DNA from: an uncultured Cetobacterium sp.
GTDB taxonomy: Bacteria; Fusobacteriota; Fusobacteriia; Fusobacteriales; Fusobacteriaceae
Direction of reading: 5' to 3'
NCBI GenBank assembly: GCA_949293295.1
Contig: CASFCG010000025.1
Coordinates: 1-46,064, forward strand
DNA: 46,064 bases
The notes beneath the pieces are model-generated. The model did no database searches. It was not told where the DNA came from and saw nothing but the letters and a program-made list of their open reading frames with translations. The position numbers were made by a program, and so were the translations under genes. Below, in pieces: positions 28,052-41,984 of this stretch. Position 1 is the first letter of the stretch; the number at the start of each line of letters is the position of its first letter.

Positions 28052-30403
28052 ATGACTAAATTAAATCAAAATCAAACGCCGATATTTTCAACTTTAAAGG
28101 ATGTGTATGCTAAGCGTGATATAACCCCTTTCCATGTCCCAGGACATAAAAGAGGAAAAGGAGTAGACAAAGAGTTTTATGAATTTATGGGAAAGAATCC
28201 TTTTTCAATTGATGTAACTATTTTTAAGATGGTCGATGGATTACACAATCCAAAAAGTTGTATAAAAAAAGCTCAAGAGTTAGCAGCAGATGCTTATGGA
28301 GTTAAGAGGAGCTTTTTTGCTGTAAACGGAACCTCTGGAGCCATTCAAGCTATGATTATGTCGGTTGTAAAACCTGGAGAAAAAATCTTAGTTCCTAGAA
28401 ATGTTCATAAATCAGTATCAGCTGGAATAATTCTTAGTGGTTCTAATCCAGTTTATATGAATCCGGAGGTTGATAATGAGCTTGGAATAGCTCACGGAAT
28501 AAAACCAGAAGTTGTTGAGAATATGTTGAAAATACATCCAGACACAAAAGCTGTTTTAATAATCAATCCAACATATTATGGAGCAACTACAGATATAAAA
28601 CGAATAGCTGATATAGTTCATAGTTATGATATACCTTTAATTGTTGATGAAGCTCATGGGGCACATCTTCATTTTCATGAAGAGCTACCAATGGCTGCAA
28701 TGGATGCAGGAGCAGATATTTGTTGTCAAAGCACTCATAAAATAATAGGAGCAATGACTCAAATGTCAATGTTACATGTAAATTCTGATAGAGTGGATGC
28801 CAATAGAGTTCAACAGATTTTAAGTTTACTTCATACAACTTCTCCTTCATATCCGTTAATGGCTTCTTTAGATTGTGCAAGAAGACAGATAGCGATAGTG
28901 GGAAGAGAACTTTTGACAAAAACTTTAAAACTAGCTAGAGAGTTAAGAAGTGAGATAAACAAAATACCTGGGATATATGCTTTTGGAAAAGAGATAATTG
29001 GAAAATATGGAATATATGATTTTGATGAAACTAAATTGTCAATATCTGCTCGTGAGTTAGGATTAACTGGATTTGAGCTTGAAACATTATTAGTAGATGA
29101 TTATAATATTCAAGTTGAGTTATCGGATTTTTATAATGTGTTAGGGCTAATAACTTTGGGAGATGATGAAGAGAGCACAGGAAAATTATTATCTGCTTTG
29201 AAAGATATAAGTGAAAGATTTTATGGAAAAGGAAAAAGATTGATAAATAAAACTGAAAAATTTCCAAATCTACCAGAAGCTTTATTGATTCCGAGAGAGG
29301 CTTTCTACAGTGAGACAAATAAGGTTAAATTTGACGAGAGCGAAGGGAAAATATGTGCAGAAATGATAATGGCTTATCCTCCAGGAATTCCAATAATTAC
29401 ACCGGGAGAGAGAATTACTAAAGAGATAATAGAGTATATAAAAAGCTTAAAGATTGCTAAACTTCATGTTCAAGGAATGGAGGATGAGAATTTAGAATAC
29501 ATTAAGATTATAGAGGAAGAGGATGCAATTTATCTTTATACAGAAAAAATGAAAAATAAGATGTTTGCAGTTCCAATGAACTTAGGAGCAAATAAAGCTG
29601 GAATTGAATTTGGACCAGAGGTATTAGAGGAGTACTTTCCAGATACTTTTGGAGAGATGACTTATATTGAAGTTGAAAAACAAAGAGAGAACTTTAATGA
29701 TTGGTCTTTAAAATATAAAAATACTGTTTTAAATACATGTGAAAAGTTAGCAACTGCAGTAAATGAGGCTGTGAAAGATGGATATAGACCTATTACCATC
29801 GGTGGAGACCACTCCATCGCTTTAGGTTCTATTTCAGGTGTCGCACTTGAAAAAGAGATTGGTGTTGTTTGGATAGATGCTCATGGTGATATGAATACTG
29901 ATGAGACGACAGTATCTGGGAATATTCATGGAATGCCGCTTGCTTTGTTACAAGGTGCAGGAGATAGGGACCTTGTAAATTGTTTTTATGAAGGAGCTAA
30001 GATAGATAGTAAAAATGTTGTTATATTAGGGGCGAGAGATTTAGATGTAAAAGAGAGAGAGGTTATTCAAGAATTAGGAGTAAAGGTTATTCCTTATGAT
30101 GAGGTTATACATAAGGGACTTGACAATGTATTAGAAGAGATTAAAGAGTATTTAAAGATTGATAATATTCATATAAGCTTTGATGTAGACTCTATTGACC
30201 CAGAGTTTGCCCCTGGAGTAAGTACCCCTGTAAGAAATGGTTTTACCCCTGAAGATATGTTTAAAACATTTAAATTTTTGTTCAAAAACTATTATATTAC
30301 ATCTGTTGATATTGTGGAATATAATCCTGTAAATGATAAGAATGAAAAAACGATGAATTTTGTCAATGATTTGACAGAGTTTGTATTGAATCCTAATATG
30401 TAG
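28052..30403 (+). CDS. Fused SpeA-like PLP decarboxylase and arginase-family ureohydrolase
   Basis: 783 residues, two complete enzymes in one frame. Residues 1 to about 490 are a short-form Orn/Lys/Arg decarboxylase: TPFHVPGHKRG, NGTSGAIQAMIMSVVKPG, VDEAHGAHLHFHEELP, PLP lysine K230 in STHKIIG, and AYPPGIPIITPGE. It closely resembles B. subtilis SpeA over its whole length. Residues 503-783 are an arginase fold with manganese ligands H587 (GGDH), D609/H611/D613 (DAHGD), D711 and D713 (FDVDSIDP). SGNIHGMP (622-629) and VEYNP (755-759) are arginase-type rather than agmatinase-type. Together they could make putrescine, urea and CO2 from arginine by either order of steps. The start ATG follows AAGGAGG. 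Specificity of each half is inferred. Confidence 0.9.
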   Translation: MTKLNQNQTPIFSTLKDVYAKRDITPFHVPGHKRGKGVDKEFYEFMGKNPFSIDVTIFKMVDGLHNPKSCIKKAQELAADAYGVKRSFFAVNGTSGAIQAMIMSVVKPGEKILVPRNVHKSVSAGIILSGSNPVYMNPEVDNELGIAHGIKPEVVENMLKIHPDTKAVLIINPTYYGATTDIKRIADIVHSYDIPLIVDEAHGAHLHFHEELPMAAMDAGADICCQSTHKIIGAMTQMSMLHVNSDRVDANRVQQILSLLHTTSPSYPLMASLDCARRQIAIVGRELLTKTLKLARELRSEINKIPGIYAFGKEIIGKYGIYDFDETKLSISARELGLTGFELETLLVDDYNIQVELSDFYNVLGLITLGDDEESTGKLLSALKDISERFYGKGKRLINKTEKFPNLPEALLIPREAFYSETNKVKFDESEGKICAEMIMAYPPGIPIITPGERITKEIIEYIKSLKIAKLHVQGMEDENLEYIKIIEEEDAIYLYTEKMKNKMFAVPMNLGANKAGIEFGPEVLEEYFPDTFGEMTYIEVEKQRENFNDWSLKYKNTVLNTCEKLATAVNEAVKDGYRPITIGGDHSIALGSISGVALEKEIGVVWIDAHGDMNTDETTVSGNIHGMPLALLQGAGDRDLVNCFYEGAKIDSKNVVILGARDLDVKEREVIQELGVKVIPYDEVIHKGLDNVLEEIKEYLKIDNIHISFDVDSIDPEFAPGVSTPVRNGFTPEDMFKTFKFLFKNYYITSVDIVEYNPVNDKNEKTMNFVNDLTEFVLNPNM

Positions 30404-37705: not shown

Positions 37706-38935
37706 ATGACGACTATAATAATACTTATTGGAACAGAGCTGTTAAGTGGAGCAACATTAGATACAAATAGTATATATATGGCAAAAGAATTAAATAAAGT
37801 TGGAATAAAGATAACCTATAAATTAACAGTAGGGGATAAAATAGAGGATATAATAGAAGCTTTAAAATTTGCTAAGGATAGAGCACAACTTATTATTTTA
37901 TCAGGTGGATTAGGACCAACAGATGATGATTTAACTAAAAAGGCATTAAGTAAGTTTTTGGGGCGAAAATTAATAGTTGATGCGGAAGAGCTGGAAGAGG
38001 CAAAAAATAAGTTTAAAAAGTTAGATTTGGAGTTTTTGGATAAAAATCTAAAAGAGATTGAAAAACCGAAAGGAGCTTATTCAATAAAAAATGACGTCGG
38101 AATAGCCCCAGCTTTTTATGTAGATGATATAGCTGTGTTCCCAGGTGTTCCGTCGGAGCTAAAAAATATGTTTCCCAAGTTTCTAGATTACTATATAAAA
38201 CAGAGTGGAAAAGAGATAGACCCAATCTATATAAAAGATTTTTTGATAAATGGAATCCCTGAATCAATTATAGAAGAGAAAGTTAAAGAATTTTTCACAT
38301 ATGATGGGATTGAATATGAATTTTTATTGAAAAATAATGGAGTTTTGCTTAGATTACAGACAACTGAGAAAAATAAAAAGATAGTAGAAAAAATTAGAGA
38401 AAAGATATATAATAGATTAGGTAATCATATAATATCAGAAGATGATGAAAATATACTTGAAAAGTTGTATAACTTAATGGAAAAAGAGAATATGACACTG
38501 TCTGTAGTTGAATCTTGTACAGGAGGATTACTATCTTCTAAAATAGTTTCGATAGAAGGGATTTCTAAGTACTATAAAGAGGGAATTGTTACTTATAGTA
38601 ATAGTTCAAAACTACTTCGAGCAGGAGTAAAAGAAGAAAGTTTGACTAGATATTCAGCAGTTAGTTCAGAAGTAGCAAAAGAGATGTTAAGCAATATAGA
38701 TACAGATTTAGGGATAGCCATAACGGGTTATGCAAGTTTGAGTGCTGGATTGGATGAGGATATGGTCGGTGTTGTCTATATCGCTACAAAAGTTGGAGAT
38801 AAGTTGAATTGTGAGCGTTATAAATTTTTAGGTGATAGAGATACGATAAGAGAAAAAGCTGTGTACCAAAGTTTATTTAATTTGTGTAGAAAAATGGAGG
38901 AGGTTTTTAGAAGTGAGCATAGGAGAGAGGATTAG
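37706..38935 (+). CDS. cinA: CinA-family protein (nicotinamide-nucleotide amidase type)
   Basis: 409 residues. The N-terminal MoaB/MogA-like domain (about 1-165: LIGTELLSGATLDTNSIYMAKEL, LSGGLGPTDDDLTKKAL, FPGVPSELKNMFP) is followed by a linker. The C-terminal CinA/PncC domain (about 255-405) has VVESCTGGLLSSKIV, YKEGIVTYSNSSK and AITGYASLSAG. It recycles NMN and ADP-ribose in NAD metabolism. Of two adjacent ATGs the second (37706) has the better 5-base spacing from AAGGAG. In Gram-positives the gene is near pgsA and recA; here it follows pgpA. It overlaps the next gene by 23 bases. Confidence 0.94.
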   Translation: MTTIIILIGTELLSGATLDTNSIYMAKELNKVGIKITYKLTVGDKIEDIIEALKFAKDRAQLIILSGGLGPTDDDLTKKALSKFLGRKLIVDAEELEEAKNKFKKLDLEFLDKNLKEIEKPKGAYSIKNDVGIAPAFYVDDIAVFPGVPSELKNMFPKFLDYYIKQSGKEIDPIYIKDFLINGIPESIIEEKVKEFFTYDGIEYEFLLKNNGVLLRLQTTEKNKKIVEKIREKIYNRLGNHIISEDDENILEKLYNLMEKENMTLSVVESCTGGLLSSKIVSIEGISKYYKEGIVTYSNSSKLLRAGVKEESLTRYSAVSSEVAKEMLSNIDTDLGIAITGYASLSAGLDEDMVGVVYIATKVGDKLNCERYKFLGDRDTIREKAVYQSLFNLCRKMEEVFRSEHRRED

Positions 38936-39461
38936 GAAAAGTAGAAATGATAAATCACTGTCTCTTAGAGAACTTGCGACAATGGTTGAGTTGTCGGCGA
39001 GTTTCCTATCTCAAATAGAGCAAGGAAAAGCTTCGCCTTCTATTGAAAATCTAAAAAAAATAGCAAATAGTTTAGATGTGAGAGTAAGTTATTTGATAGA
39101 AGATGAAGAGATAAAAAAAAATTCAGAGCTAATAAGAGCCAATGAGAGAAATAAAGTTGAGAGCATAGATTCAAAGACTGTTATATCACTATTGACATCA
39201 TCAAATATAGAAAAGAGTATGGAACCAATATTGTATGAGATAGGTCCGGGTGGAGAGAGTGGAAGAAGCTATTATACTCATTTTGGTGAAGAGTTTATAT
39301 TTATTTTAGATGGGGAATTAGATATCTACATAGAAGAAACTATATATAATTTAAAAAAGGGAGATAGCTTCTACTTTAAATCGACTCAAAGACATAGATT
39401 TAAGAATAATTCTAATAAGATTGCAAGGGCGTTGTGGGTTGTGAATCCGCCGACGTTTTAA
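38913..39461 (+). CDS. XRE-cupin transcriptional regulator
   Basis: 182 residues. The N-terminal helix-turn-helix (about 3-60: IRKSRNDKSLSLRELATMVELSASFLSQIEQGKASPSIENLKKIANSL) is joined to a C-terminal cupin (about 100-180: YYTHFGEEFIFILDGELDIYIEE, LKKGDSFYFKSTQRHRFKN). Relatives such as PuuR sense small molecules. The start is GTG (38913) after GGAGGAGGT, inside the end of cinA. The next gene, 18 bases downstream, is the FakA-FakB fusion, so control of fatty-acid uptake or of this operon is possible but unproven. Confidence 0.9.
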   Translation: MSIGERIRKSRNDKSLSLRELATMVELSASFLSQIEQGKASPSIENLKKIANSLDVRVSYLIEDEEIKKNSELIRANERNKVESIDSKTVISLLTSSNIEKSMEPILYEIGPGGESGRSYYTHFGEEFIFILDGELDIYIEETIYNLKKGDSFYFKSTQRHRFKNNSNKIARALWVVNPPTF

Positions 39462-39479: not shown

Positions 39480-41984
39480 ATGGAAATAAAAGTATTGAAT
39501 TCTATAAGGTTGATAAAATTGTTAATTGCAGCAAGTAGATGGTTATCTAGGTATGCAGATGTGTTAAATGATTTGAATGTATATCCAGTGCCAGACGGTG
39601 ATACCGGAACGAATATGTCAATGACAATGCAGGCAGTAGAAAATGAATTGGTTAGATTAAATCATGAGCCCTCTATGGATGAATTAGTGGAGAGAGTTTC
39701 AGAGGCTATTTTGCTGGGAGCAAGGGGAAATTCTGGAACAATTTTATCACAAATAGTTCAAGGATTTTTGAAAGGAATAAAAGGGAAAGAGGAACTTTCT
39801 GTAGAAGATGTAAAGGTTGCATTGGTTTCTGCCAAAGAACAAGCATATAAAGCGGTAAGTGAACCGGTAGAGGGAACGATGTTGACTGTGATAAGGAGAG
39901 TAGCGGAAGAGGCACAAAATTATAAAGAAGGGGATAACCTAGTATCATTTTTACTTTATCTGAAAGAGGTTGCAAATGATGCGGTTTTAGAGACTCCAAA
40001 TCAACTACCTAAGCTGAAAGAAGCAGGAGTTGTGGATGCTGGGGGACAAGGGTTATTCTATATTTTAGAGGGATTTGAAAAATCAGTTACAGACGCAGAG
40101 ATGCTACATGATTTGGAAAGAGTTATTCAATCTCAATCTAAGAGAAAAGATTTTATAGAACAAACAAATCATTTCCATGAGGAGATAAAGTTCAAGTATT
40201 GTACGGAATTTATAATTGAGGCTGGAAATTTTGATTTAGATGAATATAAGTCAAGACTTGTGAATTTTGGGGATTCTTTGGTTTGTGCTCAAACATCTAA
40301 AAAAACAAAAACTCATATACACACAAACAATCCCGGAAGAGTTTTAGAGATAGCTACAGAGCATGGAAATTTGACGAATATAAAGATTGATAACATGGAG
40401 ATTCAGCATATAAATTTATTGTTGAGTGAGGAAGAAAACTACAAATTCGCCACTCAAGGAAAAGTTTTGGTACAAAATGAGAATAGTAAACCGATTGCAT
40501 ACTTTGCTATTGTGGACAATCTAGAACTTGGAAATCTTTTTTTGAATAACGGAGCTACAGCAGTGTTGATTGGAGGGCAAACTCAGAATCCAAGTGTGGC
40601 AGATATAGAAGATGGATTGAAAAAAATAAAATCAAATAAAGTGATATTGTTACCAAATAATAAAAATATAATCTCATCAGCTAAGATTGCTGCTGAAAGG
40701 TCGGATAAAGAGGTTATCGTTATAGAGACTAAAACTATGTTAGAGGGAGAATATTTAGTAAAAAATAAAGAGTTTGGAATAGATGACAATTTGAAACAGA
40801 TAGCAGTAAATAACTCTATTGAAATTACACAGGCTGTTAGAGATACGAAAGTGGACTCATTAATTATAAGTAAAGGTGATTATATAGCGTTAGTCGATGG
40901 TAAAATAAAATTGAAGAGTTCTACATTAGAGGGCTTAATAACATCGGTGTATGATAGTTACGTAACGACTAATACCTTAAGTGTTTTCGCTGCAATAGGA
41001 AAAGGGTCAACACCAGAAGCAAATGAAGCTTTAAAATCAATTTCATCTGTAATCTCATATTCAGATATTGTTGTGGGGCAAGAAAATTATCCGTATTATA
41101 TATATATAACAAATAGAAATCCTGAACTTGCAGAGATTGCAATAGTTACAGATTCAACATCAGATTTAACTCCAGATATGATAAAGGGCTTAGATATAGA
41201 TATTGTTCCATTAAAGATAAAATTGGATGGAGATACTTACTATAGAGAGGGCGTAGATTTAACAAAAGAGCAGTTTTGGAAAAGGTTATTAAAAGGAGAT
41301 GTTATACCTAAAACATCGCAACCATCACCAGCAGAATTTAAGGAGATGTATAAAAAACTATTTGACAAAGGGTACAAAAAGATTATATCAATTCATATAT
41401 CTAGTAAATTAAGTGGAACTCAACAGGCAGCAAGGGTTGCTAGAGGGATGCTAAACAGAGATGAAGATATTGCCATTGTGGATTCTAAAACAGTTACATT
41501 TGCTTTAGCTCATTTAGTATTGGAATCAGCTAAAATGGTAAAGAGTGGAAAAAGTTACGATGAGATTTTGAATTGGTTAGATGAGACAAGAAATAGAATG
41601 AAAGTTTATTTTGTTGTAAAAGAGTTAGACTATTTAGAAAAAGGTGGAAGAATTGGAAGAGCTTCTTCAATAATAGGAGGTTTTTTCAAGATAAAACCAG
41701 TTCTAAAAGTTGAAGATGGAGAGATTTCAATCGAAACCAAAGCGATTGGAGAAAGAGGAGCGTTATCTCACTTAGAAAAATTGATAAAAAATGAAAAACA
41801 GAGTATTATCATGTACACAGCATGGGGAGGAACAAGTAGTGAGTTAGAAGCTTCTGACCATTTGAAACATGTAGCTGAAAAAACAAAAAAACTTGATTAT
41901 AGAGGTAGATTTGAGATTGGAGCAACGATTGCTTCTCACTCAGGACCGGTCTACGGAATCGGAATTTTAAATAAAATTAGATAG
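39480..41984 (+). CDS. Fused fatty acid kinase: DAK2/FakA plus DegV/FakB
   Basis: 834 residues. Residues 1 to about 548 match a whole FakA: DAK2 kinase domain with NVYPVPDGDTGTNMSMTM (D39, D41 and neighbours bind Mg-ATP), GARGNSGTILSQI, GTMLTVIR and DAGGQGLFYILEG, then the FakA middle and C-terminal domains. Residues about 552-834 are a whole DegV/FakB: IVTDSTSDL (555-563), TSQPSPAEF, SSKLSGTQQAA, IVDSKTVTFA, ELDYLEKGGRIGRAS and IASHSGPVYGIG. In Firmicutes these are separate proteins; FakB presents a fatty acid and FakA phosphorylates it to acyl phosphate. Here they form one chain. Ribosome site ATGGAGG. Confidence 0.92.
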   Translation: MEIKVLNSIRLIKLLIAASRWLSRYADVLNDLNVYPVPDGDTGTNMSMTMQAVENELVRLNHEPSMDELVERVSEAILLGARGNSGTILSQIVQGFLKGIKGKEELSVEDVKVALVSAKEQAYKAVSEPVEGTMLTVIRRVAEEAQNYKEGDNLVSFLLYLKEVANDAVLETPNQLPKLKEAGVVDAGGQGLFYILEGFEKSVTDAEMLHDLERVIQSQSKRKDFIEQTNHFHEEIKFKYCTEFIIEAGNFDLDEYKSRLVNFGDSLVCAQTSKKTKTHIHTNNPGRVLEIATEHGNLTNIKIDNMEIQHINLLLSEEENYKFATQGKVLVQNENSKPIAYFAIVDNLELGNLFLNNGATAVLIGGQTQNPSVADIEDGLKKIKSNKVILLPNNKNIISSAKIAAERSDKEVIVIETKTMLEGEYLVKNKEFGIDDNLKQIAVNNSIEITQAVRDTKVDSLIISKGDYIALVDGKIKLKSSTLEGLITSVYDSYVTTNTLSVFAAIGKGSTPEANEALKSISSVISYSDIVVGQENYPYYIYITNRNPELAEIAIVTDSTSDLTPDMIKGLDIDIVPLKIKLDGDTYYREGVDLTKEQFWKRLLKGDVIPKTSQPSPAEFKEMYKKLFDKGYKKIISIHISSKLSGTQQAARVARGMLNRDEDIAIVDSKTVTFALAHLVLESAKMVKSGKSYDEILNWLDETRNRMKVYFVVKELDYLEKGGRIGRASSIIGGFFKIKPVLKVEDGEISIETKAIGERGALSHLEKLIKNEKQSIIMYTAWGGTSSELEASDHLKHVAEKTKKLDYRGRFEIGATIASHSGPVYGIGILNKIR

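What the first reader, a model, noticed from the sequence alone, without database searches (positions are those of the whole stretch)
39480..41984. FakA and FakB fused in one polypeptide
Fatty acid kinase normally has a kinase (FakA, DAK2) and an exchangeable fatty-acid-binding protein (FakB, DegV). Here the two are joined at about residue 550, with both sets of motifs complete. Fixing the partners would remove the FakB1/FakB2 choice that sets chain specificity and could channel acyl phosphate to PlsX/PlsY. In a TonB-bearing, outer-membraned organism this is a distinctive design.
Basis: partly seen in the sequence, partly recalled or inferred. Interest (0 to 1): 0.65.

Follow-up and report, generated by a model that had tools for sequence, protein, structure and literature searches.

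The report
One-chain fatty acid kinase of fusobacteria
Fusobacteria carry the two usually separate halves of an enzyme that activates free fatty acids for membrane building as a single protein chain, and in one whole family of them it appears to be the only recognisable enzyme that can make the activated form their membranes are built from.

Summary
Confirmed: window 39480-41984 is one 834-aa ORF, a complete FakA joined to a complete DegV/FakB by about 8 residues. It is not peculiar to this Cetobacterium-like genome: of 98 Fusobacteriota genomes, 93 have DegV, fused full-length in 88, fused but short in 4, free in 1; none has a second DegV above cut-off. No such frame appeared among the Bacillota rows listed or in 34 clostridial genomes. 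Catalytic residues are kept in 28 of 28 full-length fusions aligned, but the position of FakB Arg205, which docks free FakB on FakA and membrane, is Ile/Leu/Phe in all 28. Larger point: family f4 (33 genomes, probably Leptotrichiaceae) has PlsY in 33 and the fusion in 32 but no true PlsX, though 24 keep fabF; there the fusion is the only recognised acyl-phosphate source. Four short forms lost the C-terminal domain and catalytic residues. Activity, channelling and the f4 inference are untested.

The parts
39480..41984 (+). FakA-DegV(FakB) fusion gene, 834 aa
   Evidence: single ORF; Pfam and NCBIfam domains; only DegV and only DAK2 match in the genome
39585..40079 (+). DAK2 nucleotide-binding domain (FakA_N), residues 36-200; PVPDGDTGTNMSM motif
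   Evidence: D39, D41, T42 kept in 28 of 28 full-length fusions
40188..40412 (+). FakA middle domain (FakA_L), residues 237-311, with Cys241, His279, His281
   Evidence: PF21645; equivalents of S. aureus Cys240/His282/His284 (PMC9136124 abstract and section 7); 28 of 28
40503..41108 (+). FakA C-terminal domain (FakB-docking domain in S. aureus), residues 342-543
   Evidence: PF13684; role from PMC9136124 section 10
41112..41135 (+). junction/linker, residues 545-552 (NRNPELAE); roughly N-[RK]-[DN]-P-x-x-P-E in most fusions
   Evidence: alignment of 28 fusions with free FakAs, which stop at this point
41136..41969 (+). DegV/FakB domain, residues 553-830, with Thr612, Ser645, Arg724, His820
   Evidence: PF02645; equivalents of FakB1 Thr62, Ser95, Arg173, His270 (PMC8892158 passages; alignment)
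41745..41747 (+). Ile756 codon at the FakB1 Arg205 position
   Evidence: I/L/F in 28 of 28 fusions against 20 Arg, 3 Lys, 5 Gln, 5 other in 33 free clostridial DegVs
38913..39461 (+). XRE-HTH plus cupin regulator directly upstream, candidate regulator of the fusion
   Evidence: present 5' of the fusion in 17 of 17 full-length non-f4 loci examined, 0 of 4 short-form loci, 1 of 11 f4 loci (weak)

Best explanation
The gene encodes a complete fatty acid kinase in one chain. The DegV half takes a free fatty acid from the membrane, presents its carboxylate to the DAK2 and middle domains of the fused FakA, and acyl phosphate is made (inferred from domains and residues). The product serves PlsY directly, or PlsX in reverse to acyl-ACP where PlsX exists. 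Fusion arose once before the Fusobacteriales radiated, fixing 1:1 pairing with a single FakB; electrostatic docking through Arg205 was then replaced by the covalent link (inferred). In family f4, which keeps PlsY but has no PlsX, this chain is the only recognised acyl-phosphate source, so free fatty acids, taken up or released inside, would have to pass through it to start phospholipid synthesis (inferred).
For: Domain and subfamily matches above cut-off: TIGR03599 YloV 457.7 bits (cut-off 396.1), TIGR00762 DegV 288.7 (99.7), PF21645, PF13684. Catalytic Cys-His-His and FakB Thr/Ser/Arg/His set kept in 28 of 28 full-length fusions (Thr to Ser in 2). Foldseek of the AF2 model finds the S. suis FakA-FakB2 complex chains and FakB structures. 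Single-copy DegV phylum-wide. Fused DegV halves form one clade, 100/100, against 33 DegV copies from clostridial loci plus one from L098. PlsY in the own genome and in 96 of 98 genomes. f4: PlsY 33 of 33, fusion 32 of 33, true PlsX 0 of 33, fabF 24 of 33; the plsX gene that precedes fabH-fabD-acpP-fabF in Cetobacterium-genus genome G013 is absent from the f4 clusters of G073 and G090. The f4 PF02504 matches are GrdD (2 of 5 tested) and Pta (G090).
Against: No activity is shown. The curated equivalog models for FakA (335 of 975 bits) and FakB1 (171 of 350) are not reached. G064 (f4, 99% complete) has PlsY but neither PlsX, DegV nor DAK2, so PlsY may get by without either there. For FASII-competent f4 genomes a step freeing acyl chains from ACP is needed; the one thioesterase family I searched (PF01643) gave only 2 marginal matches in 33 f4 genomes. 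F. nucleatum growth was not rescued by exogenous fatty acids when FabK was blocked (PMC11091888 passages), although LPS needs would explain that. Some free clostridial DegVs also lack Arg205 (10 of 33 have neither Arg nor Lys), so its loss is not proof of changed docking.
Confidence: 0.74

Rival explanations
1. A plain fusion with no functional consequence: it works exactly as FakA plus one FakB, with linkage only securing stoichiometry, and in f4 acyl phosphate comes from an unrecognised PlsX replacement.
For: All catalytic residues kept. G064 has PlsY without PlsX or the fusion, so an unrecognised donor enzyme is conceivable. f4 also has AMP-binding/ACP/PlsC triple-domain proteins.
Against: Universal swap at the Arg205 position suggests the docking changed. 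PF02504 is sensitive enough to pick up GrdD and even Pta, so an ordinary PlsX would not be missed. No enzyme other than PlsX and Fak is known to me to feed PlsY (recalled; PMC11633183 passages, state PlsY's need for acyl phosphate).
Confidence: 0.3
2. The fusion is no longer a fatty acid kinase but a regulatory or sensing protein, as may be the case for the short forms.
For: Four short forms (627-634 aa) have lost FakA_C and catalytic residues yet remain open. An XRE-cupin regulator adjoins full-length copies.
Against: The full-length form keeps every catalytic residue in 28 of 28 rows across the order; the loss is confined to g12 (3 genomes) and G047.
Confidence: 0.08
3. Assembly or frameshift artefact joining two genes.
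For: None found.
Against: Nine named assemblies and 86 of 98 genomes show the same frame, including single-contig genomes.
Confidence: 0.01

Closest known systems
FakA/FakB two-component fatty acid kinase of Bacillota (S. aureus, S. suis, E. faecalis)
   Same: Same three FakA domains and DegV fold, same catalytic residues; S. suis FakA-FakB2 complex is the best structural match
   Different: Two proteins with exchangeable, often several FakBs (1-8 DegV matches in 33 of 34 clostridial genomes); free DegVs mostly keep a basic residue at Arg205 (23 of 33)
TIGR03599 'DAK2 domain fusion protein YloV'
   Same: FakA part scores above its cut-off
   Different: The model covers the FakA part only (530 positions); the DegV half is outside it
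One-chain dihydroxyacetone kinases (Citrobacter freundii type)
   Same: Also a DhaL/DAK2 kinase and a partner domain in one chain, per PMC9136124 (passage)
   Different: Substrate dihydroxyacetone; DhaL and glycerone kinase models only weakly matched here
PlsX bypass in S. aureus delta-plsX suppressors
   Same: Free fatty acid released inside the cell replaces the need for PlsX (PMC13245860 abstract)
   Different: Laboratory suppressor mutants with separate Fak proteins, not a natural lineage

Membership tests
FakA (fatty acid kinase catalytic subunit) | DAK2, middle and C-terminal FakA domains in order | tested here: met
   PF02734, PF21645, PF13684 above cut-off
FakA (fatty acid kinase catalytic subunit) | Cys240/His282/His284 of FakA_L | tested here: met
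   C241, H279, H281; 28 of 28 full-length fusions
FakA (fatty acid kinase catalytic subunit) | NCBIfam equivalog NF038248 cut-off | tested here: not met
   335.4 bits against 975; the subfamily model TIGR03599 is met
FakB (DegV fatty-acid-binding subunit) | DegV fold with Thr62, Ser95, Arg173, His270 | tested here: met
   T612, S645, R724, H820; PF02645 294.5 bits
FakB (DegV fatty-acid-binding subunit) | Arg205 for FakA and membrane engagement (called completely conserved in PMC8892158) | tested here: not met
   Ile756; I/L/F in 28 of 28 fusions; but my sample of 33 free DegVs has Arg in only 20
FakB (DegV fatty-acid-binding subunit) | NCBIfam FakB1 equivalog NF038249 cut-off | tested here: not met
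   171.3 bits against 350
Two-component Fak system | separate, exchangeable FakA and FakB | tested here: not met
   single chain; no other DegV above cut-off
Fatty acid kinase activity | ATP-dependent acyl phosphate formation | not testable with these tools
   needs an assay

The most novel reading that the evidence does not exclude
In the f4 family (probably Leptotrichiaceae) the fused kinase has replaced PlsX: phospholipid synthesis at sn-1 starts only from free fatty acids phosphorylated by this one protein, whether scavenged from the host or released from the cell's own FASII; eight f4 genomes that have the fusion but no fabF match would then depend on scavenged fatty acids alone. It would be a natural lineage of outer-membraned bacteria that runs PlsY without PlsX.
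Probability: 0.42. Interest if true: 0.75.

Novelty: new variant of a known kind. Interest (0 to 1): 0.55.

Why it matters
Fak is described as a Gram-positive strategy with exchangeable FakBs (PMC10146087 passage). Here a diderm phylum has it as one chain with one binding half, so kinase-FakB docking, membrane exchange and specificity can be studied at fixed stoichiometry. If f4 truly lives without PlsX, acyl phosphate supply has a second natural solution, and the fusion would be a likely choke point in those bacteria. It also bears on why F. nucleatum cannot bypass FASII inhibitors with added fatty acids.

Tried and rejected
Artefact: rejected. Fusion outside the phylum: L098 (Clostridia) matched residues 6-742 but is separate degV, fakA and plsX genes; 299 Bacillota genomes, 263 with FakA_C, no frame of 700 aa or more among the rows listed, but the list was cut, so this is not a full count; 34 clostridial genomes gave no frame near 830 aa (frames of 574 and 613 aa not examined; one absurd 24165-aa frame set aside). 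Other phyla were not surveyed.

'Fusion made FakA_C dispensable': the short forms first looked like that, but they also lost Cys241, and in g12 also His279, Thr612 and His820, so decay is the better reading. Whether G047 and g12 shortened once or twice is unsettled: the N-terminal tree joins them (98/95), the DegV tree puts G047 with the full-length g11 copy (97/89).

Thioesterase search to explain acyl release in f4 (PF01643): 37 of 98 genomes matched, mostly weakly, f4 2 of 33 marginal; not supportive, and other thioesterase families were not searched. AF2 model: mean pLDDT 77, pTM 0.48, DegV half poorly supported, so the geometry between halves was not used. PlsB as alternative: ~820-830 aa PF01553 proteins proved to be AMP-binding/ACP/PlsC proteins in the 3 scanned with Pfam, not PlsB; the rest were not scanned.

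Papers: searches (held open-access library) listed no paper whose title or abstract start reports a FakA-FakB fusion in one protein; one search found none holding both PlsX and Leptotrichia; searches listed nothing that states it. Public domain databases probably list this architecture (recalled, not checked).

Full report
OBSERVATION. Window 39480-41984 (+) is one ORF of 834 aa. Pfam gives Dak2 36-200, FakA-like_M 237-311, FakA-like_C 342-543 and DegV 553-830; NCBIfam gives YloV (TIGR03599, 457.7 bits, cut-off 396.1) and DegV (TIGR00762) above cut-off, but not the FakA or FakB1 equivalog models. The window lies in a 1.18 Mb, 82.8% complete assembly; the closest named relatives are Cetobacterium (73-78% identity over all 834 residues). 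DegV and DAK2 each have one match in this genome.

PHYLUM SURVEY. Of 98 genomes searched (the phylum of the window's genome), 93 have a DegV match. In 86 the frame is 827-863 aa. Two more are cut by contig ends but align across the junction or from the N-terminus into DegV (G024: query 500-831; G058: 6-688). Four are short fusions of 626-634 aa (G047, G050, G051, G052). One (G045, 70% complete) has only a free DegV with 31% identity, possibly contamination. Five have none: G008 (67% complete), G001, G063, G064, G097. The only second DegV match in any genome is below cut-off (G074, 20.5 bits). So the fusion is the rule of the order, and no genome has a spare FakB above cut-off beside it. Fused DegV halves (31 rows plus the window) form one clade with 100/100 support against the free DegVs sampled: 33 from clostridial loci and one from L098.

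RESIDUES. On a MAFFT alignment with 28 full-length fusions (one or a few loci per genus, not all 88), Cys241/His279/His281, equivalents of S. aureus FakA Cys240/His282/His284 (PMC9136124: abstract, sections 7, 10, 12 and passages seen), are kept in 28 of 28; Thr612 (Ser in 2), Ser645, Arg724 and His820, equivalents of FakB1 Thr62, Ser95, Arg173, His270 (PMC8892158, passages seen), are kept in 28 of 28. The equivalence rests on the phmmer alignment with S. aureus FakB1, 7sg3. The fifth residue of that hydrogen-bond network, Ser171, is Gly in all 28. FakB1 Arg205, which PMC8892158 calls completely conserved and which docks FakB to FakA and to the membrane, is Ile756 here and I/L/F in 28 of 28 fusions; in 33 free clostridial DegVs it is Arg 20, Lys 3, Gln 5, other 5, so 'completely conserved' does not hold in my sample, but the fused set is uniformly hydrophobic. 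The partner residue on FakA, Glu548 at its C-terminus, aligns with residue 544: Glu in 23, Asp in 1, Thr/Ser in 4 of 28 fusions, the four being three Cetobacterium rows (window included) and genus g2. Eight residues then lead to DegV.

SHORT FORMS. The four short fusions lack FakA_C (PF13684). The three g12 ones have Cys to Asn, His279 to Gln, Thr612 to Val/Ile, His820 to Ala/Tyr (and Arg724 to Lys and His281 to Asn in one); G047 has only Cys to Ser among these. They look like decaying or repurposed copies. The XRE-cupin regulator that lies 5' of the fusion in 17 of 17 full-length non-f4 loci examined is missing at 4 of 4 short-form loci.

CONTEXT IN LIPID SYNTHESIS. PlsY is in 96 of 98 genomes. 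PF02504 (PlsX family) matches in 67 of 98; in family f4 (G064-G096, 33 genomes) the 6 matches are of another kind: G081 and G083 tested as GrdD, G084-G086 have similar frame length and score but were not tested with NCBIfam, G090 is a phosphotransacetylase. So PlsX is in 61 of 65 outside f4 (the four misses being G000, G045 and G047, all under 83% complete, and G001; matches outside f4 taken at face value) and in 0 of 33 in f4. fabF is in 62 of 65 outside f4 and 24 of 33 in f4; only fabF was searched as a FASII marker. In Cetobacterium-genus genome G013 the order is plsX-fabH-fabD-acpP-fabF; in f4 genomes G073 and G090 fabH-fabD-acpP-fabF stand without plsX (fabH of G073 and plsX of G013 confirmed, the other names read from sequence starts and the match). 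f4 has the fusion in 32 of 33. Thus for 32 f4 genomes the fusion is the only recognised acyl-phosphate source for PlsY. S. aureus delta-plsX suppressors show that internally freed fatty acids can bypass PlsX (PMC13245860, abstract seen). Against: G064 has PlsY with neither; and a thioesterase search with PF01643 did not support internal release in f4.

LITERATURE. F. nucleatum is not rescued from FabK or thiolactomycin block by exogenous fatty acids (PMC11091888, passages seen; 'FakA' and 'fatty acid kinase' do not occur in its text). This does not exclude Fak activity, since LPS precursors come from FASII, as its authors say. PMC10146087 (passages) calls FakAB a Gram-positive strategy; PMC11633183 (passages) describes PlsX/Y/PlsB routes. 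PMC12594616 (passages) uses 'fusion' for reporter constructs.

STRUCTURE. AF2 on 46 rows: mean pLDDT 77, pTM 0.48. Foldseek: S. suis FakA-FakB2 complex chain A (E 1.2e-42), S. aureus FakA N- and C-domains, and FakBs. The halves' mutual placement is not trusted.

VERDICT. A real, phylum-wide one-chain fatty acid kinase. The fusion itself is a new variant of a known kind; the PlsX-free family is the part that would surprise a specialist if confirmed.

Noticed in passing
window 28052-30403 (+): A 783-aa ORF joins an Orn/Lys/Arg decarboxylase (residues 9-479) to an arginase/agmatinase-family domain (504-774): a second pathway-enzyme fusion in the window.
   Followed up: no
L135:1610-4069, L137:1615-4110, L139:1980-4469, L145:9682-12162: Fusobacteria carry ~820-830 aa proteins with AMP-binding, phosphopantetheine (ACP-like) and PlsC acyltransferase domains in one chain (L145 scanned only with NCBIfam): a second candidate one-chain machine for free fatty acids.
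   Followed up: partly
L141-L144 (G050, G052, G051, G047): Short FakA-DegV fusions without FakA_C and with lost catalytic residues, still open reading frames.
   Followed up: partly
G064 (L172, L134): A 1.2 Mb, 99% complete f4 genome has PlsY but no PlsX, DegV, DAK2 or fabF match; how it makes acyl phosphate is unexplained.
   Followed up: no
window 38913-39461 (+): XRE-cupin regulator next to the fusion in Fusobacteriaceae, absent at short-form loci and mostly at f4 loci; a possible fatty-acid-responsive regulator (guess).
   Followed up: partly
L038:2310-2831, L145:7118-7612: A small HAD phosphatase that resembles KdsC (by eye, not scanned) sits between regulator and fusion, or directly upstream of the fusion.
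   Followed up: no
L213:9164-9571, L215:9890-10312: A small protein (LiaF-TM match in L215 only) stands between fabH and fabD in the two f4 FASII clusters examined.
   Followed up: no
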